A DNA stretch of 64,000 nucleotides from assembly GCF_000821065.1 (NCBI RefSeq), contig NZ_CDGG01000001.1, positions 2,666,001 to 2,730,000 on the forward strand, given 5' to 3'. Shown piece after piece: positions 32,497 to 48,258 of the stretch (its first letter is position 1; each line of letters starts with the position of its first letter). The DNA is from Oceanobacillus oncorhynchi (lineage in GTDB: Bacteria; Bacillota; Bacilli; Bacillales; Amphibacillaceae). Below the pieces are notes generated by a model, which was not told the origin of the DNA, searched no databases, and saw only the letters and a program-made list of their open reading frames with translations. The position numbers were made by a program, and so were the translations under genes.

Positions 32497-33393
32497 ATGT
32501 TGTATGATTGCGCAGTTATTGGAGGAGGACCTGCCGGATTAAATGCATCACTTGTTTTAGGCAGGGGTAGAAAAGAAATTATTTTATTTGATGACGATAC
32601 ACCTCGTAATGCCATAACACAGGAATCTCATAATTTTATTACCAGAGATGGGATTCATCCAGCAGCATTTAAAAAAGCGGCTTATGAAGATTTAAATAAA
32701 TATCCAACGGTTTCCGTTGAAAGAAATCAAGTGGTTGATATTGTTCCTGCTGCCTCTTATTTTCAGATTCAAACAGGGAGAGGGCAGGTCTTTGATGCGC
32801 AAAGAATTATTTTGGCAACGGGATTAAAAGATATTCTTCCTGAGATAGAAGGTATCCAACAATTTTACGGAACAAGTCTTTTTGGATGCCCGTACTGTGA
32901 TGGGTGGGAGCTGAAAGATCTTCCATTGGTTTATATTGCTGCATATCCACATGCTTTTAACAGTGTGAAAATGGTTTCGAATTGGAGCAAGGATATTGTT
33001 GTTTGCACAAATGGGAAGGATAGTATATCTCCAGAGGAAAAAGCTATCCTAGCACAAAAGAATATTCCGGTTTTAGAAGACGAAATTTTGCGGCTGCAAG
33101 GAGAAGGCGGGCAATTAAAAAGCATTCAATTTAAGAATGGGAAGGAACTCCGTCGCGAAGCCGGGTTTATTTCGTATAAATTACAGCAGGCTGCACCATT
33201 TGCCGGGCGTCTGGGTTTAGAATCCAATGGCGCGGGGGGAATTAGAATAGATCCCTATGGACGCACAAGCAGGAAAGGTGTATATGCTGCAGGAGATAAT
33301 GCTGGCGGTCTGCCTCAACAGATTGTAGCTGCGGCTGAAGGAAGCAAAGCGGCGATAAGTGTACTCAGTGATTACGTGGCAGAAAACTTTTAA
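32497..33393 (+). CDS. Thioredoxin reductase-like FAD oxidoreductase, paralogue 1
   Basis: This 298-residue flavoprotein has the FAD site VIGGGPAGLNASLVLGRG at residues 8-25, a redox pair in CPYCDGWE near residue 132 and the second FAD motif GVYAAGDNAGG near residue 266. The NAD(P) domain lacks a clear GxGxxA motif, unlike true thioredoxin reductase, so the electron donor is uncertain. A second gene at 34073 is clearly similar along the whole length. Only a weak Zur-like half site (ATTACGAAATT, about 32456) lies upstream here. Confidence 0.8.
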   Translation: MLYDCAVIGGGPAGLNASLVLGRGRKEIILFDDDTPRNAITQESHNFITRDGIHPAAFKKAAYEDLNKYPTVSVERNQVVDIVPAASYFQIQTGRGQVFDAQRIILATGLKDILPEIEGIQQFYGTSLFGCPYCDGWELKDLPLVYIAAYPHAFNSVKMVSNWSKDIVVCTNGKDSISPEEKAILAQKNIPVLEDEILRLQGEGGQLKSIQFKNGKELRREAGFISYKLQQAAPFAGRLGLESNGAGGIRIDPYGRTSRKGVYAAGDNAGGLPQQIVAAAEGSKAAISVLSDYVAENF

Positions 33394-33410
33394 ATAATTT
33401 ATTGTTTACA

Positions 33411-33443
33411 TACACCCTTTTATCATTAAAAGAGGGTGTATTT
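33411..33443 (+). terminator. Terminator after TrxR-like paralogue 1
   Basis: TACACCCTTTT pairs with AGAGGGTGTA and is followed by TTTTT. Confidence 0.75.
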
Positions 33444-33505
33444 TTGAGGAAGGAAATGATAAAATAACTTCCTTATTATTAGAGAATATTGAAGGAGTTT
33501 ATTGG

Positions 33506-33832
33506 ATGGAAGGGAATAAATTATTATCATCATTATGTTATTTTAGTATCTTTTTTGCGCCATTTTTATTTCCGATTTTGGTATGGATTCTTGGAGATGA
33601 GGAAACAAAAGGGCACGCGAAGAAAGCCTTATGGACACATCTTATTCCAATTATCGCAACCATTATTGCAGGAATCATTATCTTTTCAATTGGCATCGGA
33701 CAAGTTTGGACAGATGAAGTAAGCGGCAGATTATTTATTGCAATGATAATTGCGATAGCTGTGTGTTTTATCATTGATGTGTATTATTTTATCTGGAATA
33801 TTGTTAAAGGGATTAAGGTACTGAGCTCTTAA
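33506..33832 (+). CDS. DUF4870 family small membrane protein
   Basis: This 108-residue protein has three membrane helices and the DUF4870/Tic20-like pattern: LCYFSIFFAPFLFPILVWI, then ETKGHAKKALWTHL and a C-terminal helix pair. GAAGGAG precedes the ATG. It stands alone between the two TrxR-like genes. Function unknown. Confidence 0.75.
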   Translation: MEGNKLLSSLCYFSIFFAPFLFPILVWILGDEETKGHAKKALWTHLIPIIATIIAGIIIFSIGIGQVWTDEVSGRLFIAMIIAIAVCFIIDVYYFIWNIVKGIKVLSS

Positions 33833-33998
33833 TAACGAATTTAGAAATGAAATATAAAAATAAGTAGAATCTATAGATGATGGGATATTTTTCTATAGGT
33901 TCTTTTATTTTACATATAGTACAGATTGAAGTAAAAAAGAATCTCATCAGCTTCTGCTTGAATCAAAGAATGGATAAGAAAGAATCTCCTTACTTGAT

Positions 33999-34019
33999 AA
34001 ATCGTAATCATTACGATAT
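33999..34019. promoter_or_regulatory. Zur box upstream of TrxR-like paralogue 2
   Basis: The halves AAATCGTAAT and ATTACGATAT around a central C match the B. subtilis Zur box in 20 of 21 positions. It lies 54 bases before the TTG start. A hairpin (TTACGCA/TGCGTAA) sits between box and ribosome site. Confidence 0.85.
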
Positions 34020-34072
34020 AGTTAATAAAAATTACGCAAAACAGAACCTGCGTAACGAAGGAGGAGATTATA

Positions 34073-34969
34073 TTGGTATATGATTGTGCTGTTATCGGGG
34101 GAGGCCCTGCCGGGTTAAATGCATCTCTTGTTTTAGGCAGAGGAAAAAAAGAAGTGATTTTATTGGATGATGATGCCCCGCGCAATGCTGTCACACAGGA
34201 ATCTCATAATTTTATTACCAGAGATGGTGTAAAACCAGCTGAGTTTCGGGAAGCGGCCCATGCAGATTTAAAAAAGTATCCGAATATAGTGATTCAAAAA
34301 GACCGGGTGACCGATATAGATTCGGCTGCTTCTCCTTTTCGCATTCACACAGAAGCAGGGAAGGATTACGAAGCAAAAACCATTATTCTGGCAACAGGAC
34401 TGAAGGATGTATTGCCTGATATCCAAGGAATCCATGATTTTTATGGAAAGAGCCTGTTTGCCTGCCCTTTCTGTGATGGGTGGGAGCTAAAAGACATTCC
34501 GCTGGTTTATATTGCTGATGGAGAATTTTCTTTTCATGGTATAAAAATGATTTCCAATTGGAATAAAGATATAGTCATTTGCACAAATGGCAAAGAAAGC
34601 TTCTCCGCTGAAGAAAGAGATATTTTGAAGCAAAAGCAATTCGAGGTTATTGATGATGAAATTTTACGATTGCAAGGAGAAAATGAGCAATTAAAAGCAA
34701 TTTTATTTAAGAATGGAAACGAATTGTATAAAGAAGCAGGTTTTATATCTTATAAAATGGAGCAGGCTGCCCCTTTTGCTGAGCGCCTGGGTTTAGAGCT
34801 GAACGAGATGGGTGGAATTAAAACAGATTCGCAAGGCCGGACAAGTATCAAAGGGATTTATGCCGGCGGAGATAATGCATCTGGTCCGCCGCAGCTGATT
34901 ATTGCTGCAAGTGAAGGGAGTAAAGCGGCGATAGGGGTGATTAGTGATTTTGTGGAGGAAACATTTTAA
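34073..34969 (+). CDS. Thioredoxin reductase-like FAD oxidoreductase, paralogue 2, Zur-controlled
   Basis: This 298-residue flavoprotein matches paralogue 1 throughout: VIGGGPAGLNASLVLGRG for FAD, the redox pair as CPFCDGWE near residue 132, and GIYAGGDNASG near residue 266. It starts with TTG after GAAGGAGGAG. A near-perfect Zur box upstream means it should be made when zinc is scarce. A role in thiol redox chemistry during zinc starvation, for example freeing zinc from or protecting Cys sites, is inference; the substrate is unknown. Confidence 0.8.
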   Translation: MVYDCAVIGGGPAGLNASLVLGRGKKEVILLDDDAPRNAVTQESHNFITRDGVKPAEFREAAHADLKKYPNIVIQKDRVTDIDSAASPFRIHTEAGKDYEAKTIILATGLKDVLPDIQGIHDFYGKSLFACPFCDGWELKDIPLVYIADGEFSFHGIKMISNWNKDIVICTNGKESFSAEERDILKQKQFEVIDDEILRLQGENEQLKAILFKNGNELYKEAGFISYKMEQAAPFAERLGLELNEMGGIKTDSQGRTSIKGIYAGGDNASGPPQLIIAASEGSKAAIGVISDFVEETF

Positions 34970-34983
34970 ATCATAAATTGATA

Positions 34984-35042
34984 AGTGAAACCTTATTCAG
35001 CAGGGATTTTCTTTTTAACCCTCGCGGAATGAGGTTTCACTT
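34984..35042. terminator. Hairpin between TrxR-like paralogue 2 and the MurE-like gene
   Basis: GTGAAACCTTATTC pairs with GAATGAGGTTTCAC around an inner imperfect stem. It separates convergent genes and shares GAATGARGTTTCACTTTAT with the sequence at 29.26 kb. Confidence 0.65.
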
Positions 35043-35051
35043 TATTCGCAG

Positions 35052-36518
35052 CTATTTTAATAAATTACGCAGTTTTAAATGTTCCTTTTCTAACACCCTT
35101 TTCCCTTCTTTTTGCAAAACATACTCCACAGTTTCTCTATCGGAGCTCACTGGCAAACTGAAATCCAAGCGATAACGTTCATTTCCTTTCCCCGTGATGA
35201 TTACCCAGTCTTTTTCCGCTGCCTTTTCAATAGCATACTGTATAGCTAAGGTGCGATCTGAAATAACCTGTCCTTCGTTTAGTTCATTGAGCTCTTGGAG
35301 CATAGCAGCAGAGGGGACGCCATTTAAGTCATCAAATGTAAGAATGATTTCATCCGCCAGTTTTTTAGAAACAGTTATCATTTTATTTCTTTTACTGGAA
35401 TCTCTGTCTCCTCTAAAACCAAAAACATGAAAAACTTTTTCGGCGCCCTCGATTTTAGCAGTGGTAAGACAATTAGAAAAAGCTTCTGCAGTATGGGCAT
35501 AATCTACAACAATTGTTGTCCCATTTGAACGCTTGAATAGTTCAAATCTTCCGGGAACACCAGAGAATGTACGTAATGATTTCATGATTTGCTGAATGGG
35601 GACGCCTATTTGCGAGGCTGTCAAGAATGCCATCGCCGCATTATACGTATTATGCTGTCCCAGGATAGTTAATTGAAGGGGAAGGTTACATCCTTTATAG
35701 GAGATTTCAGAAAAACCAGGGGTTATTTTATTTATCTTTAGCGCATCGCTTTCTTTATTCCCTAAAGTAATTAAGGAGAAATTACGGGATGGAAGTATGC
35801 TGCTAAGCTTTGCTCCCCATTCATTATAGTTGTTGATAATCGCATACCCATGGTCTTTTAATGCTTCAAACATTTTGGCTTTGGTTAAGAAATAATCTTC
35901 CATCGTGTGATGATAATCAAGGTGGTCGTGATCTAAATTGGTAAACAGACCAAAATCAAATTCAATTCCATGTATCCTGCCCTGCGCTATTCCATGTGAA
36001 GAAACCTCCATAATAACAAATTCGTCCTTACTTATTGCCAGGTGCTTTTGCAGGCTCAGCGCATCGGGTGTTGTATTCAGCGAAGGATACGTTTCCCCAT
36101 TGATTATCGTGTTTACGGATCCAAACATGGCACATGTATGACCAGAATCCTCTAAAATATGTTTTATCATATAAGCTGTCGTGGTTTTCCCGTTTGTACC
36201 GGTGATACCAATTATTTTTTTGTCTTTTGCGGGGTTTCCGTAAAATTCAGAAGCTATTTCAGCTAAAGCCAGACGGCTGTCAGGAACTCGAATATATGGT
36301 ACGGATAACTCTTGGAGGTCTTCTTCTCCTATAATACAAACCGCACCGGCCTTGATTGCCTGATTAATAAAATCATGACCATTAAAACTGTATCCCTTTA
36401 TAGCGATGAATAAGTCATTTTTATCTGCAGATTTGGAATTTGTTGTTATTTTATTGATTATCATATTTGGTATACTCATCGGTTTACTAATATTTTTCAA
36501 TAGTTGTTGTAAATTCAT
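35052..36518 (-). CDS. MurE-like Mur ligase with atypical substrate motif
   Basis: This 488-residue Mur ligase joins an amino acid to a UDP-MurNAc-peptide using ATP. It has the ATP loop GITGTNGKTTTAYM near residue 102, the EVSSHG motif near residue 170, NLDHDHLDYH and the C-terminal GKGNERY. In MurE the meso-diaminopimelate site reads DNPR and the lysine site DNPA; here the equivalent position reads DDLNG (TFDDLNGVPSA near residue 393). Substrate choice is therefore unclear, and it is likely a second MurE-type enzyme. It stands apart from any cell-division cluster and near a penicillin-binding protein. AAGAGGTGA precedes the ATG. Confidence 0.8.
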   Translation of the reverse strand: MNLQQLLKNISKPMSIPNMIINKITTNSKSADKNDLFIAIKGYSFNGHDFINQAIKAGAVCIIGEEDLQELSVPYIRVPDSRLALAEIASEFYGNPAKDKKIIGITGTNGKTTTAYMIKHILEDSGHTCAMFGSVNTIINGETYPSLNTTPDALSLQKHLAISKDEFVIMEVSSHGIAQGRIHGIEFDFGLFTNLDHDHLDYHHTMEDYFLTKAKMFEALKDHGYAIINNYNEWGAKLSSILPSRNFSLITLGNKESDALKINKITPGFSEISYKGCNLPLQLTILGQHNTYNAAMAFLTASQIGVPIQQIMKSLRTFSGVPGRFELFKRSNGTTIVVDYAHTAEAFSNCLTTAKIEGAEKVFHVFGFRGDRDSSKRNKMITVSKKLADEIILTFDDLNGVPSAAMLQELNELNEGQVISDRTLAIQYAIEKAAEKDWVIITGKGNERYRLDFSLPVSSDRETVEYVLQKEGKRVLEKEHLKLRNLLK

Positions 36519-37341
36519 GTGTTGTCACCTCTTAAACATAGGGAATGATACGGGAGAATGTAATATTACCTTAGGTTTTGCCATTTGAAGATAATTTATT
36601 ATAATGATGGGCAGGTAATTTGCCATCGAGAAGAAATAAATTCGTCATGGGAAATCCCGATAGAAGAGAGGCTGTAAAAATTTCAAAGTATTTGCTTTAA
36701 AATATGGCGATTCTTCTAGTAAGGAAAGCTTATAACGCAGATGCGTTAATAATTTATTATCATTATATGTAGGAAGAGAAGAGCAAAGGCAAATTCAAAG
36801 TAAATATATTTCTTCTCTTCCAGAACCAATGGATGTCACCCTTTTAAATAGCTGTTTGGGCGTTAGTATAACCACTGATCATTTAAAAAATTCTCTGTGA
36901 AAAATGGCTGATTGTCATCATTAAAATCGACACCAACTCCTAATTCAGCAAAGTTATCCTGCAATATATTCTCACGGTGCCCTTCGGAATTCATTAAACC
37001 CTGATGAGCAAAAACGCTGCTGAATTGTCCATAGGCCAGGTTCTCGTTAGAAAAATAACTGCCTCATATCTTATAAAGGGATTTTTTATAAAACAGGGTT
37101 TATTTATACAAGGAAAGAGGTATTAAATAGATGAAAAAGCGTACCAATATTAAAAAGAAATTTCTGAAAACATTAAAACGGATTGGTTAACTTGATATGT
37201 ACTTACTTGAGCTTTACAATCTGAAATGGGAATAATCAGCAGAATGAATTATTTTAAATTTGTTGCTCAATCAGCTGACAAAGTATTTCAAGAAAGATAT
37301 CATATTGATAATATACTTGAAATAGAACAAGGAGGGGAAAA
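36519..37341. other. Eroded intergenic region with gene remnants
   Basis: Besides the CAP-domain remnant described separately, it holds a palindrome GTAATATTAC near 36560 before the MurE-like gene, a hairpin GGAAGAGAAG/CTTCTCTTCC near 36771-36821, and a 19-codon basic ORF at 37131-37190 (MKKRTNIKKKFLKTLKRIG). That ORF has a weak ribosome site and may be the start of a lost gene. Confidence 0.5.
36863..37053 (-). pseudogene. C-terminal remnant of a CAP/SCP-domain secreted protein (YkwD-like)
   Basis: On the minus strand 62 codons read SYFSNENLAYGQFSSVFAHQ, then GLMNSEGHRENILQ and ELGVGVDFN, ending TENFLNDQWLY and stop. These are the last motifs of a CAP domain, with the HREN signature. A stop codon precedes them in frame and no start or upstream half is present, so the gene has lost its N-terminus. 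Confidence 0.8.
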
Positions 37342-39459
37342 GTGGCAGACAAAAAAAATAAGAAAAAACGAGCCCCGCTCTCTATACGTATGAATATCCT
37401 CTTTTTTGCCATCTTCCTATTATTTTCTGCGCTCGTACTTCAGTTAGGTGTTGTTCAGATTTTAAATGGAGAATCGTATCAAGATGAAATTCAGAGGACG
37501 AATTTAGATACAACGAATGTACCCGTACCCCGGGGGAAAATCTATGATACCAATGGAGAACTTATTGTAGATAATGAAGCAATGTATTCTATTACGTACA
37601 CACCTTCGAATGATGTGCAAGCAGAGGAGCGTCTGGAAGTAGCTGAAAAGCTGGCGCAATATATCGATATGGGTGATGAACAAACCATCGATCGAATAAC
37701 AGACAGAGATAGAAGAGAATATTATCTATTGCATCATGAGGAAGAGATAGAAGAGCGGCTAGAGACGGTCAATACAGAAGAAATGGAGAATTCCGAGGTA
37801 TATGATGCCACGCTGGAATTAATCACAGATGAAGAAATTTCCGATTTTACAGATGATGAATTAGAGATTATTGCGATAAAAAAAGAATTGGATAGTGCCT
37901 ATGCTTTAACCCCGCAGGTTGTCAAAAATGAAGATGTCACAGCCGAGGAATATGCAGCTGTAGCGGAAAATTTAGATGAACTGCCTGGAATCAATGCCAG
38001 TACAGATTGGGACCGCGTTTATCCAAATGGAGACACGTTAACTAGTATTCTAGGCAACGTCTCCAGTCAGGAAGAAGGTATTCCTGAAGAGGATTTGAAT
38101 GCTTACTTAACAATGGGATACAGCAGAAACGATCGTGTTGGTACAAGTGGACTTGAGGAGCAATATGAAGATTTCCTTCGCGGTCGTAAAGAACAAATCC
38201 AATATACGACAAGCCAAAATGGATCGATTATCGGTTCAGAAACGATTGTGGACGGCGAACGGGGAAAAGATTTAGTATTAACGACAGATTTAGAATTTCA
38301 GCAGGAAGTGGATGATATTTTATTAGATGAATTTCAATCCATGAAAGCAAGCAGCCCATATGAAAATCGGTTTGCAACCAATGCCTATGCTGTTGTTATG
38401 AATCCGAAAACGGGAGAACTGTTAGCCACTTCTGGTGTAGAATATGATACCGAGAATGATGAATATAATAATAATGCCGGGTTTACAGCGTTGGCTAACG
38501 CGCATGAGCCTGGTTCCAGTATTAAAGGGGCAACAATTCTGGCAGGTTATGATTCCGAAGTTATTTCTCCCGGGGAAACGTTTAACGATGCACCGATGCG
38601 GCTGGCAGGATCGGAAGTGAAAAGGTCGGTTCAAGATATGGGAACGGTAAATGATTTAACTGCACTGGAAAGGTCCTCTAACGTTTATATGTTCTATGTT
38701 GCCTTGCGGTTAGGGGGAGACTATCGTCATCCGATGCCGCGAAATGCCAATTTAGATATAAACATGGGTGAAACGTTGCAAACCCTGCAAAATTATTTTA
38801 ATCAATTCGGACTCGGTTCGACTACAGGAGTGGACTTTCCATATGAGAGTACTGGATTAAGAGGACAGGTTCCTGATAATCCAGGGAATCTGCTTGATTT
38901 TGTCATCGGGCAGTATGATACGTATACGACCATGCAGCTTGCTCAGTATGTATCCACGATTGCGAATGATGGCTATCGTGTTCAGCCTCATTTCTTAAAG
39001 GAAGCCCGTGATCCAGTTGCTTCCATGGATGAGCTTGGCCCATTGTATTATTCGTCCAATACAACGACGATGAACCGAATTGAGATGACAGATGATGAAA
39101 TTAGTCGTGTGCAGGACGGGTTTCGTCTTTCCTATCAAGGGTCACAAGGAACAGGTAATGATTATTTCGATGATAAATCATATAACCCGGCAGGAAAAAC
39201 AGGGACAGCAGAGTCAGCGGAATTTGTTGATGGAGAGCGGTTTGACCTCAATAATTTAACCTTAGTCGGCTATGCACCATTTGATGATCCGGAAATTGCT
39301 TTTGCAGTAGTTGTACCGCATGTTGGAATTGGTGAAGGAGATCAGATTAACTTAAAAGTTGGGGAACGTGTTTTAGATTCCTATTTTGAAGTCAAAGAAG
39401 ATCACGACGAAGAAGCTGAGGGTTCTGATGGTGATAGTGATAATGAAGAGGAAGAATAA
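37342..39459 (+). CDS. Class B penicillin-binding protein (PbpA/PbpH-type transpeptidase)
   Basis: This 705-residue membrane-anchored transpeptidase crosslinks peptidoglycan, probably for side-wall elongation. It has one N-terminal helix (residues 18-40), the dimerisation domain starting VPVPRGKIYDTNGELI and the transpeptidase domain. There the SxxK motif is SSIK (EPGSSIKGAT), the second motif is SSN (ERSSNVYMF) and the third is KTGT (NPAGKTGTAE). The C-terminus is an acidic tail. It starts with GTG after GGAGGGG. An atypical MurE-like gene is nearby, which may mark an accessory wall-synthesis pair. Confidence 0.9.
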   Translation: MADKKNKKKRAPLSIRMNILFFAIFLLFSALVLQLGVVQILNGESYQDEIQRTNLDTTNVPVPRGKIYDTNGELIVDNEAMYSITYTPSNDVQAEERLEVAEKLAQYIDMGDEQTIDRITDRDRREYYLLHHEEEIEERLETVNTEEMENSEVYDATLELITDEEISDFTDDELEIIAIKKELDSAYALTPQVVKNEDVTAEEYAAVAENLDELPGINASTDWDRVYPNGDTLTSILGNVSSQEEGIPEEDLNAYLTMGYSRNDRVGTSGLEEQYEDFLRGRKEQIQYTTSQNGSIIGSETIVDGERGKDLVLTTDLEFQQEVDDILLDEFQSMKASSPYENRFATNAYAVVMNPKTGELLATSGVEYDTENDEYNNNAGFTALANAHEPGSSIKGATILAGYDSEVISPGETFNDAPMRLAGSEVKRSVQDMGTVNDLTALERSSNVYMFYVALRLGGDYRHPMPRNANLDINMGETLQTLQNYFNQFGLGSTTGVDFPYESTGLRGQVPDNPGNLLDFVIGQYDTYTTMQLAQYVSTIANDGYRVQPHFLKEARDPVASMDELGPLYYSSNTTTMNRIEMTDDEISRVQDGFRLSYQGSQGTGNDYFDDKSYNPAGKTGTAESAEFVDGERFDLNNLTLVGYAPFDDPEIAFAVVVPHVGIGEGDQINLKVGERVLDSYFEVKEDHDEEAEGSDGDSDNEEEE

Positions 39460-39523
39460 TCAACGTTTACTATCTCCTATATTGTATGGATGAAGATAAA
39501 AAAACTATATTAGAAATTATAGT

Positions 39524-39556
39524 AAACCGTGATGTGAACTAACCACATCACGGTTT
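39524..39556 (+). terminator. Terminator after the penicillin-binding protein gene
   Basis: AAACCGTGATGTG pairs perfectly with CACATCACGGTTT around a 7-base loop. The T-run is short. Confidence 0.7.
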
Positions 39557-40362: not shown

Positions 40363-40365
40363 AGA

Positions 40366-40408: not shown

Positions 40409-40860
40409 CTGCACTTATTCCTAATTGGGAGAGATTGCTGTTAAAATAGATGGTTGTTTAAAAAAGACATGGGAATCAAAAATTTATATAGAAATAGGAG
40501 TGGCCGTATCCTATCCTTCGTCGGAATTCAAGCATTTCCAAGGTTGAGCGAAGGAGAATCCGAACAGCAGGTTAGGATGATGAAATTGCTGATGCGGTAT
40601 TACGGCTAAGCAGTTAATCCTCAAGCTTTGTTATCGTGCAGTCTATTGCTGCGAACGGCGGCGTTACAATGAAATAAAGCAGCTTATCAATCATGGATAT
40701 CTGACTCTACTTGGGGGCAGGTGTCCATGGTTTTTTACTTTGACGATTCTAATGTTCGCAGCTGGAACAGGAACCTTCTATTAATTATTGTACAAATTTT
40801 TTATTACAGGTAGGGTTAACCTTTGAGGCTATCAGATAAAAAAACTAAAACGTAATAATT
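40409..40860. other. Gene-free stretch before rpsN
   Basis: About 450 bases with scattered stops in all frames. It is less AT-rich than the usual spacers here, so it may be a decayed gene, but I recognise no family. Confidence 0.45.
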
Positions 40861-40864
40861 ACTG

Positions 40865-40893
40865 TTTACATATTTAATAAAATAGTTTATAAT
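40865..40893 (+). promoter_or_regulatory. Promoter of the alternative rpsN gene
   Basis: TTTACA (40865-40870) and TATAAT (40888-40893) are 17 bases apart. The Zur box at 40900-40920 sits over the expected start of transcription. Confidence 0.75.
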
Positions 40894-40899
40894 AAATTC

Positions 40900-40920
40900 C
40901 ATTCGTAATCGTTACGATTT
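40900..40920. promoter_or_regulatory. Zur box upstream of rpsN
   Basis: CATTCGTAAT, a central C, then GTTACGATTT match the Zur box in 17 of 20 scored positions. B. subtilis also controls its zinc-free S14 gene with Zur. Confidence 0.8.
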
Positions 40921-40974
40921 AAATTTATTAAGAAATACAAAATAAAGAGTACTATTGAAAGGAGAAAGTGTAAA

Positions 40975-41244
40975 ATGGCTAAAAAGTCAAAAGTTGCAAA
41001 AGAGAAAAAACGCCAGCAAATGGTTGCACAATATGCAGAGCTAAGAAGAGAGCTAAAAGCAAAAGGAGATTATGAAGCGCTTCGTAAACTGCCTCGGGAT
41101 TCTTCACCAACCCGTTTGAAAAGCCGTTGTGAGGTTACAGGCAGACCACGCGGATATATGCGTAAATTCAACATGTCCCGTATTGCTTTTAGAGAATATG
41201 CGCATAAAGGACAAGTTCCTGGCGTGAAGAAAGCCAGCTGGTAA
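40975..41244 (+). CDS. rpsN: Zinc-independent 30S ribosomal protein S14 (C-minus paralogue)
   Basis: This 89-residue S14 is the long form without the zinc ribbon. It keeps one Cys ([21 protein letters not shown]) but lacks the two CxxC pairs of the short 61-residue zinc form. Under zinc starvation it replaces the zinc-binding S14 in new ribosomes and saves zinc. The Zur box and promoter upstream fit this. AGGAG precedes the ATG. Confidence 0.92.
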
Positions 41245-41327
41245 TCAAATCATGCAGTTATCTAAGCAGCAGTATCATCTAAGCTGACGCTGTATTTTCA
41301 TGTACCACACGATATAAGATAGGAAAG

Positions 41328-41368
41328 AAAACAGCTTTTAACGGATACTTGGCGGAAAGCTGTTTTTT
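41328..41368 (+). terminator. Terminator after rpsN
   Basis: AAAACAGCTTT pairs with AAAGCTGTTTT and is followed by TT. It lies 26 bases before the next gene, which shows no promoter of its own, so partial read-through is likely. Confidence 0.75.
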
Positions 41369-41393
41369 CTTTCATGGATAAGGAGGAAACGCA

Positions 41394-42353
41394 TTGTCAC
41401 AAGAAAGCCCCATCCCTGTAACGATTCTAACTGGGTTTTTAGGAGCCGGGAAAACAACATTGTTAAATAAACTGCTGCACGATATGCCCAATGAGAAGGC
41501 TGCTGTGATCATTAATGAGTTTGGTGATACATCGATTGATAGCCAATTAGTGATACGAACAAAGGAAGAAATCGTTGAAATTAACAGCGGCTGTATCTGT
41601 TGTAATGTACGCGGTGATTTGATCAGCTTGCTAACTGATTTAATGAAGCAGAAAGAAAAGGTGGACCGGGTTGTCATAGAAACAACGGGCATGGCGAATC
41701 CGGCTCCAGTTATTCAAACGTTTTTGATGGATGAGCAGATGGCTGATACCTTTGAAATCGACAGCGTAATCACGATGGTCGATGCGAAGCATATCGAGCA
41801 GCATTTGCAGGAAGAGGAGCCGGAGCAGCAGATTGCATTTGCCGATATTTTGCTTGTGAACAAGACCGATTTGATTACAGAAGACGAAAGAAAGCAGCTG
41901 GAAGCACAGTTAACGCATATGAATCCAAATGCCCATCAGTTTTATACGACATATGGAAACGTAGATACCAAAGAATTAATCGGAAAAAAATCGTTTGATT
42001 TAGATTATGCCTTAAACATTAATCCCGAACTGCTGACAGAACCGCATCACCATCATCATCACGTGACATCCTTTGTATTTCAAGATGAACGCCCGCTTGA
42101 TTTGGACAAAGTGAATAAATGGTTTGCTTACTTAGTTCGTATCAAAGGAGAAAGCCTCTACCGTTATAAAGGAGTGCTTTCCATTAAACAAATGGAGCAA
42201 AAAGTGGTGTTTCAAGGAGTGCATATGCTGTTTGCAGGTACAGAAGGTGATGTATGGACAAAGGATGAAAAGCGCAAAAGCGAGGTTGTTATTATTGGAA
42301 AGCATCTTGACCATCAAGAGTTGGAAAAAGGCTTTCAATATTGCCTTGCTTAA
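41394..42353 (+). CDS. COG0523 (CobW/ZagA-like) GTPase with His-rich loop
   Basis: This 319-residue GTPase belongs to the zinc-linked COG0523 metal chaperones. It has Walker A GFLGAGKTT near residue 14, the metal-binding CICC motif near residue 63, ETTGMANP, and NKTD for guanine near residue 162. A natural run of six His near residue 217 likely binds metal. The C-terminal CobW_C domain follows. It starts with TTG after AAGGAGG, right after Zur-controlled rpsN and just before the next Zur box. Such GTPases hand zinc to key enzymes when it is scarce. Confidence 0.88.
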   Translation: MSQESPIPVTILTGFLGAGKTTLLNKLLHDMPNEKAAVIINEFGDTSIDSQLVIRTKEEIVEINSGCICCNVRGDLISLLTDLMKQKEKVDRVVIETTGMANPAPVIQTFLMDEQMADTFEIDSVITMVDAKHIEQHLQEEEPEQQIAFADILLVNKTDLITEDERKQLEAQLTHMNPNAHQFYTTYGNVDTKELIGKKSFDLDYALNINPELLTEPHHHHHHVTSFVFQDERPLDLDKVNKWFAYLVRIKGESLYRYKGVLSIKQMEQKVVFQGVHMLFAGTEGDVWTKDEKRKSEVVIIGKHLDHQELEKGFQYCLA

Positions 42354-42365
42354 TTTTTGAATATA

Positions 42366-42386
42366 AAACCGTAATCATTACGATTT
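42366..42386. promoter_or_regulatory. Zur box of the flavoprotein-feoB-cobW-dcd operon
   Basis: AAACCGTAAT, a central C, then ATTACGATTT match the B. subtilis Zur box at all but one position. A -10-like TATAAA overlaps its left edge at 42362 and the ribosome site follows directly at 42388. Confidence 0.88.
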
Positions 42387-42399
42387 GAGGAGGGTAACC

Positions 42400-43509
42400 A
42401 TGAAAGGAATATATGATGTCGTTATTGTAGGGGCAGGCCCTTCAGGTATTGGTGTTGCGGCAATACTCAAGCAAATGAATGCATCCTGTCTGATTTTAGA
42501 AAAAGATGATGTTGGTGCTTCTTTTCAAAGCTGGCCGGAGGAAATGCGCTTTATTACGCCATCATTCCCGGCGCAAGGATTTGGTCAAACCGATTTAAAC
42601 GCCATCGTTCCGAAAACGTCACCGGCTTATACCCTTGATATGGAGCATCCCACAGGACCAGCTTATGCGAAATATTTGGAGGTAGTGGCAAATCATTTTG
42701 CCATTTCAATCAAAAAAGGGGTTCAGGTGAATCACATAGATAAAAAAGACACCGTTTTTTCTATAAATACGTCAGACGGAATTTATCAAAGCCGCTATGT
42801 TGTCTGGGCTGGGGGAGAATACCAATTTCCTGATGTAACGCCGTTCCCCGGTGCGGATTTGGGAATCCACAACAGTATGATTTCATCCTGGCAGGAGCTC
42901 GATGGAGATGATTTTCTTATCATTGGCGGTTATGAAAGCGGCATGGATGCTGCCTATCAATTAGGGCAGCTTGGTAAAAAGACGAGAGTGATTGCCAGAA
43001 CGAATACATGGGAAGTGGAGAGCAGTGATCCAAGTATTGCGCTGTCCACCTATACTTACAATCGGGTTCGCCCCTTATTCGATGCGGGTTTATTAACTGT
43101 AACAGGTAATACAACTGTCGCAAAGATAGAAGAAAATTCTTCAGGCTACGATGTCTATACGAAGGATGGAAAAGTATATTTTACAAAGGCGAGACCTATT
43201 CTGGCAACAGGCTTTACTGGCAGCACGAAGCAAATAGAGAATTTAGTGTCACGCGGGAAGCATAACGAAGTACTTGTGAATGAGCAGGATGAATCAACAG
43301 CAGTGAGCGGACTGTTTTTGGCAGGTCCAGAATTGCGGCATGGCAGTCATATCTTCTGTTATATTTATAAATTCCGCCAGCGGTTTGCGGTAATCGCAGA
43401 AACGATTGGAAGACAGCTGGATTTGGATTTATCCATTTTGGAAGAGTATAGACAAGAAAACTTCTATCTGGATGACCTTTCCATGTGCGGGGAGATGTGC
43501 CAATGCTAG
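42400..43509 (+). CDS. CzcO-like FAD/NAD(P) oxidoreductase with Cys-rich tail, Zur-controlled
   Basis: This 369-residue flavoprotein of the CzcO/monooxygenase-like family has an FAD motif VIVGAGPSGIGVAAIL near residue 8 and an NAD(P) motif IIGGYESGMDAAYQLGQLG near residue 173. The C-terminus ends in MCGEMCQC, a CxxxCxC cluster that could bind metal. It is the first gene of an operon under a near-perfect Zur box and overlaps the FeoB-like gene by 7 bases. CzcO-type proteins are often linked to metal genes but their reaction is unknown. Start at 42400; GGAGG lies upstream. Confidence 0.8.
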   Translation: MKGIYDVVIVGAGPSGIGVAAILKQMNASCLILEKDDVGASFQSWPEEMRFITPSFPAQGFGQTDLNAIVPKTSPAYTLDMEHPTGPAYAKYLEVVANHFAISIKKGVQVNHIDKKDTVFSINTSDGIYQSRYVVWAGGEYQFPDVTPFPGADLGIHNSMISSWQELDGDDFLIIGGYESGMDAAYQLGQLGKKTRVIARTNTWEVESSDPSIALSTYTYNRVRPLFDAGLLTVTGNTTVAKIEENSSGYDVYTKDGKVYFTKARPILATGFTGSTKQIENLVSRGKHNEVLVNEQDESTAVSGLFLAGPELRHGSHIFCYIYKFRQRFAVIAETIGRQLDLDLSILEEYRQENFYLDDLSMCGEMCQC

Positions 43510-45176
43510 AGCAGGCTCAAGCCTTTTCCCTTACGCAGGAGGAGGTGGTGCTGATTGGCAGTGAATCGGTTGGGAAGTCGGGTTTGTTCCGTGCGCTGAC
43601 AGGTGAAAAAAGTGCTGTTGCCAGGAATGTAAAAGGGTCCACGATTGCTGCTTTGAAAGCTTCCTGTCAATTACATCCCGATGTCCGTCTAACAGATCTT
43701 CCCGGGCTGCAATTTGATATGGACAGCCAGAATACACAGCTTACCCTGAACCATTTTCAGGATGATAAAACGATTTTATTAGTTGTGAAAGCCACTAATT
43801 TAAAGGAAGAATTGACCGAGCTGCAGGACGAACTAAATTTGAAAGGCAAAAGGATTGCAGTTGTTGCAACACATCGAGATAAGTATTTACCACCCGAGTC
43901 TGAACAAAATCGAATAAAGGAATTAGTACAGGTTCCCGTTATCTGGGTAAATACAAGAAAAATGGATGAGCAGGATCAGGAAGCAGTGATTGCGGGTGTT
44001 AAACAGGCTGAAGTCTGGGGAGCTTCTAAAAGTATTCTAAGCTTCCTTCCTGATTCGGGCGATACAGCTAATCAATTAATTCCGGCATTCCGTATGCCGA
44101 TTGCCGGACCAATCCTGGCTTGCTTCTTTATTTTAGGAATGTTTGCTGTCCCTGTCATGGGTGCTTATTTATTTGTCAGCTGGCTTGAGCCGATAGCTGA
44201 TCAATATGTTCTTGACCCGATTACAGGCTGGATCAATCAGGCTCCTTCTTTTTTGGCGGAGGTATTAACAGGTGATTACGGCTTGATTACGCTAGGCTCT
44301 TATTCCTTTCTGTGGGCTTTTCCTGTTGTACTGCTGATCAGTGTGATGACAAGTCTTACCGAGGAGACAGGTATACAGGAGCATGTCACACGTGCACTGG
44401 ATCCATGGCTTCGTAAAATTGGTTTGACGGGAAGGGACCTGCTTCCGGTTATCACGGGGTTCGGGTGTAATGTTGTGGCGGTTTTCCAAAGCCGGGGCTG
44501 CAGCAGCTGCACCCGCACGAGCTGTGTTTCACTGATTGCATTCGGCTCGGCATGCAGTTATCAAATCGGAGCAACGCTGTCTATCTTTAGTGCGGCACAT
44601 GTCCCGCTGTTATTTATTCCATATCTATTTATCTTATTTATCGTTGGAGCGATTCATACAAGAATTTGGAATCGGAATGAGGCAGATAATTTAACGCGTA
44701 TTGCTCCGCTTCCTTATATTCAAAAAATAAACTGGCAGGCATTTGCATGGAAGGTAGCCAGTTCGGTTAAACAATTTTTACTGCAGGCAATGCCGATATT
44801 TTTAATAATATGTCTGGCGGCATCTGTGCTCCAGGCTATGAATATATTATCTCTTCTCCATTGGCTTGCGATGCCGATACTTTATTTATTTTCCTTACCT
44901 GTAGATGCGGCGCCGGGGCTGATATTTTCTTTCATTCGAAAAGACGGTCTGCTTATCTTAAATGAAGGGCAGGGCAGCTTATTAATGGAGATGCCGCTCA
45001 GCCAGATTTTTATTCTTGTCTATCTGGCATCGACACTCTCCGCCTGTCTGGTTACATTATTTACAATTGGGAAGGAACTCGGCTGGAGGACTTCCCTGTC
45101 TATTGGCGGAAAGCAAATGCTGACCAGTGTTGTCAGTACAGCAATTCTTGCTGGAGGATTACATTTCATATTTTAA
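43503..45176 (+). CDS. FeoB-like GTPase/transporter with Cys-rich core, Zur-controlled
   Basis: This 557-residue protein has an N-terminal G domain (G1 GSESVGKSG near residue 17, G3 TDLPG near residue 63) and a membrane part with Gate/nucleoside-recognition domains. The FeoB signature is present as ITGFGCNVVAVFQSRGCSSC near residue 318, followed by TRTSC and later SACSY, giving a much higher Cys count than FeoB. The G4 motif is degenerate (THRDK), and no FeoA is nearby. Canonical FeoB imports ferrous iron and is longer. The Zur operon and flanking zinc GTPases suggest zinc or another divalent metal as cargo, which is inference. Confidence 0.78.
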   Translation: MLEQAQAFSLTQEEVVLIGSESVGKSGLFRALTGEKSAVARNVKGSTIAALKASCQLHPDVRLTDLPGLQFDMDSQNTQLTLNHFQDDKTILLVVKATNLKEELTELQDELNLKGKRIAVVATHRDKYLPPESEQNRIKELVQVPVIWVNTRKMDEQDQEAVIAGVKQAEVWGASKSILSFLPDSGDTANQLIPAFRMPIAGPILACFFILGMFAVPVMGAYLFVSWLEPIADQYVLDPITGWINQAPSFLAEVLTGDYGLITLGSYSFLWAFPVVLLISVMTSLTEETGIQEHVTRALDPWLRKIGLTGRDLLPVITGFGCNVVAVFQSRGCSSCTRTSCVSLIAFGSACSYQIGATLSIFSAAHVPLLFIPYLFILFIVGAIHTRIWNRNEADNLTRIAPLPYIQKINWQAFAWKVASSVKQFLLQAMPIFLIICLAASVLQAMNILSLLHWLAMPILYLFSLPVDAAPGLIFSFIRKDGLLILNEGQGSLLMEMPLSQIFILVYLASTLSACLVTLFTIGKELGWRTSLSIGGKQMLTSVVSTAILAGGLHFIF

Positions 45177-45194
45177 AAAGAGGAGGATGAATAC

Positions 45195-46400
45195 ATGAAG
45201 AAGATTCCTGTTACGGTATTAAGCGGGTATTTAGGTTCTGGAAAAACAACGTTATTAAATCATGTCTTACATAACCGGGAAGGGTTAAAGGTGGCGGTCA
45301 TCGTCAATGACATGAGTGAAGTCAATATTGATAGTGAGCTGGTCCAATCCCAAGGAGGATTTTCGCGGACAGAGGAAAAGCTGGTTGAAATGTCTAATGG
45401 CTGCATCTGCTGCACACTGCGGGAGGATTTATTAGTGGAAGTGGAAAAACTGGTGAAACAGGGAGAATTCGATCATATCCTAATTGAATCTTCCGGGATT
45501 AGTGAACCGATTCCTGTAGCCCAAACCTTCTCTTATATTGATGAAACGATGGATATTGATTTAACCCAATATTGCCGATTGGATACCATGGTTACCGTTG
45601 TTGACGCGAACCGCTTCTGGCACGATTTCGGTTCAGGCGATTCGCTTCTTGACCGGAAACAGGCGGTCAGTGATGTAGATGAACGAAATATTGCTGATTT
45701 ATTAATTGACCAAATTGAATTCTGTAATGTGCTTATTCTCAATAAAACGGATTTAGTCAAAGCAGAGGATTTAGAAAAGCTGGAGAAGGTGATTCGTACC
45801 TTACAGCCGGAAGCAAAAATCATCCGCACGCAGCATTGTAAGGTCGATTTACAGGAAATTGTCAATACGAATTTGTTTGATTTTGAGAAGGCAAGTGAGT
45901 CAGCCGGCTGGTTACAGGAATTAAATGCAGGCGTGGAAAATCATACGCCGGAAACCGAAGAATACGGGATCAGTTCCTTTGTATACCGGTCCAGATTGCC
46001 ATTTCATACGGAACGGCTGGTAAGCTGGTATCAGGATTTGCCAAGAGAAATTGTCCGCATGAAAGGCGTTGTCTGGTGTGCGACACATAATAATCTAGCC
46101 TTATTGCTATCGCAGGCAGGCCCTTCTGTCGAGGTGGAGCCGTTAGCTTATTGGGTCGATTCGCTGCCAAAAGCCCAGCAAAGGGAAATATTCGAGAATA
46201 ATCCGGAGGTCAGAGAGCTGTGGGATCCGCAATTCGGAGACCGCCATACCAAGCTGGTATTCATTGGCATGGACTTGGATAAGGAGCAGATAACGGAGGA
46301 TTTAGAACGCTGCTTGTTGAGTGAAACAGAAATGGATGAGGACTGGACCGCGTTTAGAAATCCATTTCCATGGCAGCTATCGGGAAGTGCGAAGGCATGA
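45195..46400 (+). CDS. COG0523 GTPase, ZagA/YciC-like
   Basis: This 401-residue GTPase has Walker A GYLGSGKTT near residue 10, CICC near residue 74, ESSGISEP and NKTD near residue 185. The C-terminal CobW_C domain has the YciC-type segment YGISSFVYRSRLPFH. In B. subtilis YciC (ZagA) is Zur-repressed and delivers zinc to the folate enzyme FolE under starvation. Here it lies 18 bases after the FeoB-like gene and overlaps dcd by 4 bases, so all are one operon. Which enzyme it serves is unknown. Confidence 0.9.
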   Translation: MKKIPVTVLSGYLGSGKTTLLNHVLHNREGLKVAVIVNDMSEVNIDSELVQSQGGFSRTEEKLVEMSNGCICCTLREDLLVEVEKLVKQGEFDHILIESSGISEPIPVAQTFSYIDETMDIDLTQYCRLDTMVTVVDANRFWHDFGSGDSLLDRKQAVSDVDERNIADLLIDQIEFCNVLILNKTDLVKAEDLEKLEKVIRTLQPEAKIIRTQHCKVDLQEIVNTNLFDFEKASESAGWLQELNAGVENHTPETEEYGISSFVYRSRLPFHTERLVSWYQDLPREIVRMKGVVWCATHNNLALLLSQAGPSVEVEPLAYWVDSLPKAQQREIFENNPEVRELWDPQFGDRHTKLVFIGMDLDKEQITEDLERCLLSETEMDEDWTAFRNPFPWQLSGSAKA

Positions 46401-46939
46401 TTTTATCCGGACAAACGATAAAACAGTATGTTGATGATAAGCAGTTAACAATTACCCCTTTTCAGGAATTAAGTGTTCAGCCAGCTTCGATTGATTTGCG
46501 GCTGGGGAAAGATTTTTTAGTTGTTGATGACTTGTCTACGCCTTATTTATCGGTTGATCAACCAGCAGATTATCGGAAAATCAAGATAGCAGAGCAAGAA
46601 ATCATCACGATTCCGCCGCAAAGTTTTCTATTGGGAACAACATTGGAACAAATTGGTCTCCCAGAACAGTTAACTGCCTTTGTGGAAGGAAGAAGCTCGA
46701 TCGGTCGGCTCGGTGTTTTTATTCAAAATGCAGGCTGGATCGTTCCGGGATTTTCTGGACAAATTACACTGGAATTGTTTAATGCAAATCGCGTGCCTGT
46801 TCAGCTGCAGGCCGGAATGCGAGTTTGCCAGCTGGTTATTGCCAAAGTGGATCAAAAAACGGAAGGGTATAGTGGAAAGTACTTGTATCAGCAAGGGACG
46901 ACACCGAGCCGTGTTTATTTGGACAAGGAAAGAACGTGA
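46397..46939 (+). CDS. dcd: dCTP deaminase (Dcd), possibly bifunctional, in a Zur operon
   Basis: This 180-residue trimeric enzyme of the Dcd/dUTPase fold converts dCTP to dUTP, or directly to dUMP in bifunctional forms. It has the start MILSGQTI, the nucleotide motif EGRSSIGRLG near residue 97, and AGWIVPGFSGQITLELFN with the catalytic Glu near residue 129. The NAGW stretch recalls bifunctional archaeal enzymes. The ATG overlaps the cobW stop (ATGA). Dcd needs no zinc, whereas the usual Bacillus route uses the zinc enzyme dCMP deaminase. Its place in a Zur operon suggests a zinc-sparing route to dUMP, which is inference. Confidence 0.88.
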   Translation: MILSGQTIKQYVDDKQLTITPFQELSVQPASIDLRLGKDFLVVDDLSTPYLSVDQPADYRKIKIAEQEIITIPPQSFLLGTTLEQIGLPEQLTAFVEGRSSIGRLGVFIQNAGWIVPGFSGQITLELFNANRVPVQLQAGMRVCQLVIAKVDQKTEGYSGKYLYQQGTTPSRVYLDKERT

Positions 46940-47002
46940 ATCTTTCATTGGCGGAGAGGAAGCTTCTTTATATATAGAAAAAAATATAGGAATAAAGACG
47001 TT

Positions 47003-47051
47003 TAGTTGGCTGTAATGCTGTCATTTCCAGAATGACGGTTACAGCCAGTTC
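47003..47051 (+). promoter_or_regulatory. Hairpin leader between dcd and the third COG0523 gene
   Basis: TTGGCTGTAA and GTCATT pair with AATGAC and TTACAGCCA in a two-part stem 26 bases before the cobW start. There is no T-run, so it may be a processing or attenuation structure rather than a terminator. Confidence 0.5.
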
Positions 47052-47076
47052 ATCTGTAAGAAAGGTGTGAAATAAA

Positions 47077-48258
47077 GTGAGCAAGAAAATACCAGTAACG
47101 GTGTTAAGCGGATTTCTAGGTGCAGGGAAAACAACTCTGCTGAATCATCTGCTTCAAAATCAGCAAGGATTGAAAATAGCCGTTATCGTGAATGATATGA
47201 GTGAAATAAATGTGGATGCCAAATTGGTAAAAGAAGGCGGCTTTATCCGTACGGAAGAAAATATGGTAGAAATGACTAATGGCTGTATTTGCTGCACATT
47301 AAGAGAAGACTTAATTGTAGAGCTGGAAAAATTAGCAAAACTTGATATCGATTATGTGTTGATTGAATCAAGCGGTGTGTCGGAACCTATTCCAGTTGCG
47401 CAAAGCTTTGTCTATGCGGATGATGAATTGGGAATCGACTTAAATGCCTTTTTTCAGCTTGATACGATGGTAACGGTCATCGATGGACATCAGTTTTGGA
47501 AGGATTATCAATCAGAGGATTTATTGATGGACCGCGGGATGGAAGTCGCTGAGGACGATGAAAGAGGCATTGTCGATTTACTGGTAGACCAGATTGAATT
47601 TGCCAATGTGATTATTTTAAATAAAACAGATCAGATGATGGAGGAAGAGATTACTTCATTAAAGAGCTTACTTTATAAATTAAACCCGGATGCGAAATTT
47701 ATCACAGCGGCCTTCGGGAAAGTAGACCCGTTACAGGTGCTTCAAACCGGTCAGTTTGATTTTGAAGAAGCAAAGCATGGCGCCGGCTGGATAAAGGAAT
47801 TGAATGAGGAGCATATTCCGGAAACAGAAGAATATGGAATCAGCTCCTTTGTCTATCGAAGCAGAAAACCGTTTCATCCCGAGCGTTTTCAAGGTTGGCT
47901 GGAAAATTGGCCGAAGGAAATCCTCCGGGCGAAAGGCTTCTTTTGGTTAGTCACCAGAAATAATGTAGCAGGGTTTTTGTCTCAGGCAGGTTCAATGATG
48001 ACACTGGAAGGAGCCGGCAGATGGCTGGCAAGCTATTCGGAAGCAGAACAGGAAGCATTAAAAGTGCAGGACCCCTCTTTGTTTGAGGACTGGGATGAGC
48101 AGGCCGGGGATCGGATGACAGAGCTTGTTTTGATTGGCAGTGAGATGGATAAGGAAGGGATTGCGGCGTCATTGGATGCTTGTTTAGTGACGGAGGAGGA
48201 AGCGGAACAGGATATTTCTGCTTTTGTGGATGATTTACCTGCTTTTCCTGTGGTTTAA
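47077..48258 (+). CDS. COG0523 GTPase, second ZagA/YciC-like paralogue
   Basis: This 393-residue GTPase closely resembles the one at 45195: GFLGAGKTT near residue 11, NGCICC near residue 69, ESSGVSEP, NKTD near residue 189 and YGISSFVYRSRKPFH in the C-terminal domain. It starts with GTG after AAGGTGTG. It lies 137 bases after dcd behind a hairpin and shows no Zur box of its own, so it is probably read from the upstream operon. Three COG0523 genes in 7 kb imply different client proteins or conditions. Confidence 0.88.
   Translation: MSKKIPVTVLSGFLGAGKTTLLNHLLQNQQGLKIAVIVNDMSEINVDAKLVKEGGFIRTEENMVEMTNGCICCTLREDLIVELEKLAKLDIDYVLIESSGVSEPIPVAQSFVYADDELGIDLNAFFQLDTMVTVIDGHQFWKDYQSEDLLMDRGMEVAEDDERGIVDLLVDQIEFANVIILNKTDQMMEEEITSLKSLLYKLNPDAKFITAAFGKVDPLQVLQTGQFDFEEAKHGAGWIKELNEEHIPETEEYGISSFVYRSRKPFHPERFQGWLENWPKEILRAKGFFWLVTRNNVAGFLSQAGSMMTLEGAGRWLASYSEAEQEALKVQDPSLFEDWDEQAGDRMTELVLIGSEMDKEGIAASLDACLVTEEEAEQDISAFVDDLPAFPVV

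What the first reader, a model, noticed from the sequence alone, without database searches (positions are those of the whole stretch)
32497..48258. Extended Zur zinc-starvation island with new candidate members
Three good Zur boxes (33999, 40900, 42366) sit before a TrxR-like flavoprotein, zinc-free S14 and a four-gene operon. Three COG0523 GTPases lie in 7 kb. S14 and YciC/ZagA are known Zur targets; the TrxR-like, CzcO-like, FeoB-like and Dcd genes are not usual members as far as I know. Together they suggest a fuller zinc economy: import, allocation and replacement.
Basis: partly seen in the sequence, partly recalled or inferred. Interest (0 to 1): 0.8.

Follow-up and report, generated by a model that had tools for sequence, protein, structure and literature searches.

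The report
Zur-controlled zinc-starvation gene island
A Bacillus relative, probably an Oceanobacillus, keeps a set of genes behind switches that should open when zinc runs out, among them an unstudied relative of an iron pump that nearly always comes with the same flavin enzyme and may be an unrecognised way for bacteria to take in zinc.

Summary
The window has four Zur boxes, not three: 33999 and 42366 (1 mismatch to the 21-mer), 40900 and a missed one at 40847 (3 each). Genome-wide the 21-mer has 10 sites at up to 3 mismatches, 0 for the reversed pattern, including sites before znuA and znuCB-zur. The 40847/40900 pair brackets the S14 promoter; the 33999 box fills the promoter spacer of the second TrxR-like gene. 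The first (32497) has no box.

S14, CobW, [box] CzcO-like, FeoB-like, CobW, Dcd, CobW recurs in this order in 12 of 22 loci from relatives and in part in the others. CzcO-like and FeoB-like are each in 23 of 159 family genomes, 22 shared, and adjacent in 71 of the 80 best named loci. Reading, from sequence alone: the pair imports a metal, probably zinc; COG0523 proteins allocate it; zinc-free S14 and Dcd replace zinc proteins; the boxed TrxR-like protein resembles dithiol oxidases that disarm zinc-chelating toxins. Regulation, substrate and activities are untested. My paper searches, judged mostly from listings, showed no link of this FeoB-like family or Dcd to Zur.

The parts
33994..34022 (+). 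Promoter of the second TrxR-like gene: TTGATA, 17 bp, TATAGT, with Zur box 33999-34019 filling the spacer
   Evidence: Promoter scan; box 1 mismatch; a box 71-79 bp upstream in 7 of 7 loci with 73% identity or more (the window's own gene and 6 relatives), in 0 of 23 more distant homologues examined
34073..34969 (+). TrxR-like flavoprotein (298 aa, CPFC), closest in the PDB to HlmI/DepH/GliT-type chains
   Evidence: PDB ranking 4fk1, 4ntd, 3fbs, 4nte, 4jn9, 4ntc, 5nii, 2q0k; no NADPH motif found by pattern
40847..40867 (+). Upstream Zur box of S14 (3 mismatches), overlaps the -35 hexamer
   Evidence: box pairs 53-54 bp apart occur 14 times in the 22 loci L053-L074
40865..40893 (+). S14 promoter TTTACA, 17 bp, TATAAT, between the two boxes
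   Evidence: 11 of 12 matches; the scan as a whole finds no more promoters than shuffles (42 against 44.3)
40900..40920 (+). Downstream Zur box of S14 (3 mismatches)
40975..41244 (+). Zinc-free ribosomal protein S14 (89 aa)
   Evidence: PRK08881 121.7 bits, cut-off 77; zinc-type S14 elsewhere at G000:C1:1470817
41394..42353 (+). COG0523 GTPase CobW_a (319 aa, His stretch)
   Evidence: cobW and CobW_C
42366..42386 (+). Zur box just before the ribosome-binding site of the CzcO-like gene (1 mismatch)
   Evidence: a box directly before CzcO in 19 of 22 family loci
42400..43509 (+). CzcO-like flavoprotein (369 aa) ending in CGEMCQC
43503..45176 (+). FeoB-like GTPase-membrane protein (557 aa); overlaps the CzcO-like gene by 7 bp
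   Evidence: FeoB_N and Gate in 76 of 76, FeoB_C in 0 of 76; invariant cysteines
45195..46400 (+). COG0523 GTPase CobW_b (401 aa, ZigA-like)
   Evidence: cobW 7.5e-60; NF038288 514 bits, cut-off 600
46397..46939 (+). Dcd, dCTP deaminase (180 aa)
   Evidence: TIGR02274 181.8 bits, cut-off 92.8; PDB 4xjc 1.3e-62
47077..48258 (+). COG0523 GTPase CobW_c (393 aa, ZigA-like)
   Evidence: cobW 1.1e-54; NF038288 512.6 bits, cut-off 600
32497..33393 (+). First TrxR-like gene, paralogue without a Zur box: listed to exclude it from the regulon
   Evidence: Best 21-mer within 200 bp upstream has 8 mismatches

Best explanation
This is part of a Zur regulon. With zinc bound, Zur sits on the boxes and blocks RNA polymerase (inside the promoter spacer of the TrxR-like gene, on both sides of the S14 promoter, at the start of the CzcO-like operon); when zinc falls the genes open. 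Shown by sequence: the boxes, their conservation, gene order, families and invariant residues. Inferred: the repression itself; (1) the FeoB-like protein is a GTPase-coupled importer, most likely of zinc, with cysteines beyond those of FeoB; (2) the CzcO-like flavoprotein is its cytosolic partner, whose C-terminal cysteine tail accepts the metal or keeps the transporter's thiols reduced; (3) the COG0523 proteins pass zinc to chosen clients; (4) zinc-free S14 and Dcd replace zinc-dependent S14 and dCMP deaminase; (5) the boxed TrxR-like protein oxidises dithiol zinc chelators such as reduced holomycin or gliotoxin to harmless disulfides.
For: Zur boxes: 10 against 0 control genome-wide, among them sites before znuA and znuCB-zur; a perfect 15-bp core, not among the 10, stands before a His-rich lipoprotein. 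Box directly before CzcO in 19 of 22 family loci. In 53 named Bacillota loci 38 have a box of up to 4 mismatches within 250 bp and 48 one of up to 3 within 4 kb upstream; reversed pattern 0 and 0. CzcO and FeoB-like: 22 of 159 genomes hold both, 2 hold one: G087 with fragments only, and G140, whose Dcd pieces lie about 23 kb apart. COG0523 match within 6 kb in 42 of 53 Bacillota and 14 of 27 other loci, Znu match in 10 and 4. Dcd: all 25 matches below 1e-40 in 159 genomes lie by COG0523 or S14 genes, 21 of them at the FeoB-like locus. A dCMP-deaminase-like protein with a zinc motif is in the genome (L159). TrxR-like. Cysteines: C333, C336, C341, C437 and H385 differ in E. coli FeoB; C322, C351, C515 are shared.
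Against: No expression, binding or transport data. 15 of 53 Bacillota loci lack a box of up to 4 mismatches directly before the pair, and 5 of 53 one of up to 3 within 4 kb upstream; L120 and L130 fail both, though each has a 4-mismatch box before S14. Three of 22 family loci have no box directly before CzcO. Outside Bacillota the B. subtilis-type box is absent in 27 of 27. Of 18 of these 27 scanned with a recalled E. coli Zur consensus, six proteobacterial loci have 5-7 mismatches of 22 (reversed control 9-12) and the other twelve 8-12 (control 9-14), which is weak. 11 of 27 have neither a COG0523 nor a Znu match nearby, and some COG0523 matches there are only 24-31% identical. The genome has no strong canonical FeoB, so the FeoB-like protein could be its only Feo-type carrier, for iron. 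The loci were picked by two motifs and are the best 80 of 325, so part of the conservation, C351 included, is by construction. The TrxR-like protein has Asp after CxxC where 4ntd and 3fbs have His.
Confidence: 0.62

Rival explanations
1. The FeoB-like protein carries another divalent metal (Fe2+, Mn2+ or Co2+) that stands in for zinc during starvation; Zur control is real.
For: FeoB_N and Gate domains and shared core cysteines with E. coli FeoB; no strong canonical FeoB in the genome (best FeoB_N match 50.4 bits; E. coli FeoB 217.2); zinc-starved C. metallidurans can use cobalt (PMC11340326, start of abstract in a search listing).
Against: FeoB_C and FeoB_Cyto absent in 76 of 76 while E. coli FeoB has both; extra invariant thiols; neighbours are zinc genes.
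Confidence: 0.22
2. The CzcO-like and FeoB-like pair does not import metal but exports or recycles thiol-bound zinc, or regulates another transporter.
Against: Derepression by zinc starvation is the wrong logic for export; znu-type genes lie within 6 kb in 10 of 53 Bacillota and 4 of 27 other loci.
Confidence: 0.12
3. The boxed TrxR-like protein is an ordinary NAD(P)H disulfide reductase that keeps thiols reduced under zinc stress, not a dithiol oxidase.
For: Asp after CxxC as in thioredoxin reductases (recall); Pyr_redox_2 family; several of its PDB relatives, 4fk1 and 4ntd included, are labelled thioredoxin reductase.
Against: 118 bits to TIGR01292 against a cut-off of 343.45; DepH and GliT chains rank before 5nii and 2q0k; no second GxGxxA or HRR motif.
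Confidence: 0.3
4. Dcd is in the operon for general dTTP supply, not as a zinc-free bypass.
For: A dUTPase_2 and a dCMP-deaminase-like protein are in the genome, so Dcd is not the only dUMP route.
Against: All 25 strong Dcd matches in the family lie by COG0523 or S14 genes.
Confidence: 0.2
5. The boxes are chance or dead sites beside unrelated genes.
For: Loose core searches do not exceed chance.
Against: 10 against 0 at the 21-mer level and conserved positions in relatives.
Confidence: 0.02

Closest known systems
Zur regulons of Bacillus subtilis and B. anthracis
   Same: Box type, znuA, znuCB-zur, zinc-free ribosomal proteins, YciC/ZagA-type COG0523 (PMC5007448 abstract and passages; PMC6336718 passages; PMC12288471 passages)
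   Different: FeoB, deaminase and oxidoreductase do not occur in the main texts of PMC6336718 and PMC4324032 (term searches); this island adds CzcO-like, FeoB-like, Dcd and a boxed TrxR-like gene
FeoB ferrous iron transporter
   Same: GTPase plus Gate domains; cysteines C322, C351, C515 shared with E. coli FeoB
   Different: No FeoB_C or FeoB_Cyto in 76 of 76; extra invariant C333, C341, C437, H385 (C336 in 74 of 76) and T-x-x-D at G4; paired with a flavoprotein
DnoP (PA4170), zinc-starvation-induced dithiol oxidase of Pseudomonas aeruginosa
   Same: Flavoprotein with CXXC, related to DepH, HlmI and GliT, expressed when zinc is short (PMC11317636: abstract, passages, sections 8 and 10)
   Different: [quoted passage not shown] here a Zur box lies in the promoter itself; activity here untested
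PDB 3d1c, S. aureus flavin-containing putative monooxygenase
   Same: Same family over nearly the full length, with a like Cys tail
   Different: Function unknown; whether it pairs with a FeoB-like protein was not checked
PDB 4xjc, deoxycytidine triphosphate deaminase
   Same: Closest solved Dcd, 1.3e-62 over residues 1-176
   Different: By recall this is the bifunctional B. halodurans enzyme; bifunctionality here untested
Corynebacterium glutamicum cg0794/cg0795
   Same: Zur-controlled COG0523 gene beside a Zur-controlled oxidoreductase gene (PMC2823685, passages)
   Different: Family of cg0795 not compared; no FeoB-like partner in the passages seen

Membership tests
Bacillus-type Zur regulon | Zur box at the promoter | tested here: met
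   recurs in relatives
Bacillus-type Zur regulon | Zur encoded in the genome | tested here: met
   Fur-family gene after znuC and znuB homologues; Zur rather than Fur or PerR by this context
Bacillus-type Zur regulon | Zinc-dependent repression and binding | not testable with these tools
   No expression or binding data
FeoB | FeoB_N and Gate domains | tested here: met
   76 of 76
FeoB | FeoB_C and FeoB_Cyto domains; feoB equivalog score | tested here: not met
   0 of 76 at E 0.001, both in E. coli FeoB; TIGR00437 92.1 bits, cut-off 315.65
FeoB | Fe2+ transport | not testable with these tools
   No assay
ZigA zinc metallochaperone (NF038288) | Curated score of 600 | tested here: not met
   514 and 512.6 bits; the broader cobW and CobW_C domains are met
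Zinc-free S14 | S14 without CxxC zinc ligands | tested here: met
dCTP deaminase | TIGR02274 cut-off | tested here: met
   181.8 against 92.8
Thioredoxin reductase (TrxB) | TIGR01292 cut-off and NADPH motif | tested here: not met
   118 against 343.45; motif absent by pattern
Natural-product dithiol oxidase (HlmI/DepH/GliT) | CXXC motif; closer in sequence to known dithiol oxidases than to thioredoxin reductases | tested here: met
   CPFC; PDB ranking; 4ntd as HlmI is recall, and no tree was built
Natural-product dithiol oxidase (HlmI/DepH/GliT) | His after CxxC as in 4ntd and 3fbs | tested here: not met
   Asp here; that His defines the family is not established, so this weighs against filing it as a member
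Natural-product dithiol oxidase (HlmI/DepH/GliT) | Oxidation of a dithiol natural product | not testable with these tools
   No assay; not filed as a member

The most novel reading that the evidence does not exclude
The FeoB-like and CzcO-like pair is a separate class of bacterial zinc importer: a GTPase-gated, cysteine-lined carrier that hands zinc to an NAD(P)H flavoprotein with a metal-binding tail, present from Bacillota to Verrucomicrobia, Chloroflexi and Proteobacteria and overlooked because it looks like an iron transporter.
Probability: 0.4. Interest if true: 0.9.

Novelty: new variant of a known kind. Interest (0 to 1): 0.7.

Why it matters
If right, proteins that look like iron transporters at some 325 loci in a collection of one genome per species belong to the zinc response, bacteria have a second energised route for zinc besides ZnuABC, a zinc-free route to dUMP joins the known zinc-sparing swaps, and a Gram-positive Zur regulon holds an enzyme of the kind that disarms zinc-chelating natural antibiotics, which puts the sensor of zinc loss in direct control of defence.

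Tried and rejected
Rejected: Zur control of the gene at 32497 (no box); the 15-bp core at 2-3 mismatches as evidence (at or below control); sites 820319 and 2142090 as regulon members (both inside ORFs); the TrxR-like gene as a thioredoxin reductase equivalog. My first upstream check of TrxR-like homologues assumed that loci were turned to the + strand; minus-strand ones were not, so those rows were wrong and were redone. E. coli FeoB added to A2 with MAFFT is reliable around the GFGCN and SC motifs; the G4 region is misplaced there, and the pairing at H385, C437 and C515 is less sure. Two further scans for tRNA (none) and for B. halodurans dCTP deaminase or czcO in papers gave nothing of use.

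Paper searches: FeoB with Zur or zinc, dCTP or dCMP deaminase with Zur, dithiol oxidase with Zur. No title, abstract or term count listed pointed to this FeoB-like family or to Dcd in a Zur regulon; one search listed 20 of 200 papers and most listed papers were not opened. Term searches inside PMC2770081, PMC6336718, PMC5007448, PMC4324032, PMC6103462 and PMC8000910 found no FeoB. The library lacks most subscription journals. In the structure search of the FeoB-like model no solved full-length FeoB was among the rows shown, which excludes nothing.

Rows dropped: L087, L096, L101, L114 and L129 from the FeoB-like alignment A2 (75 of 80 loci plus the window); L101, L114, L121, L125, L129, L147 and the eight loci without a CzcO match from A3 (66 of 80 loci plus the window). 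TrxR-like homologues: 45 of 159 genomes match; 30 loci were examined, and the second copy in G089 (69% identity) was not.
Full report
What is there. The window is G000:C1:2666001-2730000 of a 4.6 Mb genome. A genome marked 'same genus' (G085) has a contig of the same length, 1298845, as Oceanobacillus sojae NZ_LT727812.1, so the genus is most likely Oceanobacillus (inference). The 21-bp box has 10 sites at up to 3 mismatches in the genome, 0 for the reversed pattern. Four lie in the window. Others stand before znuA (L009), before znuC-znuB-zur (L008) and, as a pair at 1831871/1832367, before a 119-aa ORF and a FAD protein. Two (820319, 2142090) lie inside ORFs and look accidental. A perfect 15-bp core at 2344902, not among the 10, stands 51 bp before a His-rich lipoprotein. 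The zur gene is third in a znuC-znuB-zur order.

Promoter logic. The box at 33999 fills the spacer of TTGATA-17-TATAGT before the TrxR-like gene at 34073; the boxes 40847 and 40900 bracket TTTACA-17-TATAAT before S14. The promoter scan as a whole finds 42 sites against 44.3 in shuffles, so these calls rest on their place, not on the scan. Box starts 53 or 54 bp apart occur 14 times in the 22 family loci, not all of them before S14.

Comparative evidence. FeoB-like: 23 of 159 family genomes at 1e-60. CzcO-like: 23 of 159 at 1e-50. Both: 22. The exceptions are G087, where only fragments of the two remain, and G140, where two Dcd pieces lie about 23 kb apart and the CzcO-like gene is beside one of them. 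In the 22 loci fetched, the seven-gene order S14, CobW_a, CzcO, FeoB-like, CobW_b, Dcd, CobW_c is complete in 12; a box (up to 3 mismatches, or up to 1 in the core) directly precedes CzcO in 19, not in L056, L068 and L074. In L071 and L073 the pair stands without COG0523 or Dcd genes nearby. In a scan of one genome for each of 84,980 species, 410 stretches matched a motif and 325 encode relatives; the best 80 were kept. I sorted these by title into 53 Bacillota and 27 others. CzcO is adjacent in 71 of 80 (49 of 53, 22 of 27), a COG0523 match lies within 6 kb in 42 of 53 and 14 of 27, a box of up to 4 mismatches within 250 bp in 38 of 53, one of up to 3 within 4 kb upstream in 48 of 53, the reversed pattern in none. 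Outside Bacillota the B. subtilis-type box is absent (0 of 27). Of 18 of these scanned with a recalled E. coli consensus, six proteobacterial loci have 5-7 mismatches (control 9-12) and twelve others 8-12 (control 9-14).

Dcd. 25 of 159 genomes have a match below 1e-40; 21 lie at the FeoB-like locus and the other 4 within 1.5 kb of COG0523 and/or S14 genes, two of them with a box. The genome also holds a dCMP-deaminase-like protein with HAE and PCxxC motifs (L159; identified by eye), a dUTPase_2 and no other match to the trimeric dUTPase family. Haas et al. name nine zinc-enzyme families with Zur-linked paralogues; 'deaminase' and 'dCTP' do not occur in that text (PMC2770081, passages).

TrxR-like genes. 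The window's gene and 6 relatives of 73% identity or more carry a box 71-79 bp upstream with 1-3 mismatches (7 of 7); 23 of 23 more distant homologues have none, best 6 or more mismatches, nor has the neighbour at 32497. The PDB ranking is 4fk1 (putative thioredoxin reductase), 4ntd (labelled thioredoxin reductase; HlmI by recall), 3fbs, DepH 4nte and 4jn9, GliT 4ntc, then 5nii and 2q0k, named thioredoxin reductase. P. aeruginosa DnoP is a dithiol oxidase whose gene rises 313-fold with gliotoxin as part of the zinc-depletion response, route unresolved (PMC11317636, sections 8 and 10). Thiolutin becomes a zinc chelator when reduced in B. subtilis (PMC12288471, abstract and passages). In E. faecalis, gliotoxin brings out a pyridine nucleotide-disulphide oxidoreductase together with a cobalamin synthesis protein/P47K (COG0523-type) protein and S14 (PMC10533825, passages); its family was not compared.

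Verdict. The island is real by the sequence tests I could make, with new candidate Zur members. The most interesting part is the CzcO-like and FeoB-like pair. Function and regulation remain to be shown.

Noticed in passing
G000:C1:1831871 and 1832367; L047:1623-1982 and 2109-3269: Two Zur boxes precede a 119-aa protein without a Pfam match and a 386-aa FAD protein. Weak relatives of the small protein (27-34% identity) follow Zur boxes in four Halobacillus loci (L091, L095, L097, L154); another lies after the FeoB-like gene in L148.
   Followed up: partly
L075:1954-2529: His-rich lipoprotein behind a perfect core box (2344902) and a second, adjacent one with 2 mismatches (2344918); part of it resembles an insert in ZnuA by eye.
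   Followed up: partly
L196 and L197 near 1220-1340 (same boxes in L198): Downstream of the boxed TrxR-like gene in relatives, Zur boxes stand before a substrate-binding lipoprotein that by eye looks like a siderophore- or cobalamin-type binder, perhaps for a zinc metallophore.
   Followed up: no
L074 (G087) and G140:C1:3110448-3135678: Two relatives with decayed clusters: only fragments of CzcO-like and FeoB-like remain in one; in the other two Dcd pieces lie about 23 kb apart.
   Followed up: no
L236 (G089): The CzcO-like gene of the nearest relative has one in-frame TAG within the match.
   Followed up: no
window 22617-24347: A transposase-like ORF of 576 aa (by eye) about 8 kb before the island.
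   Followed up: no
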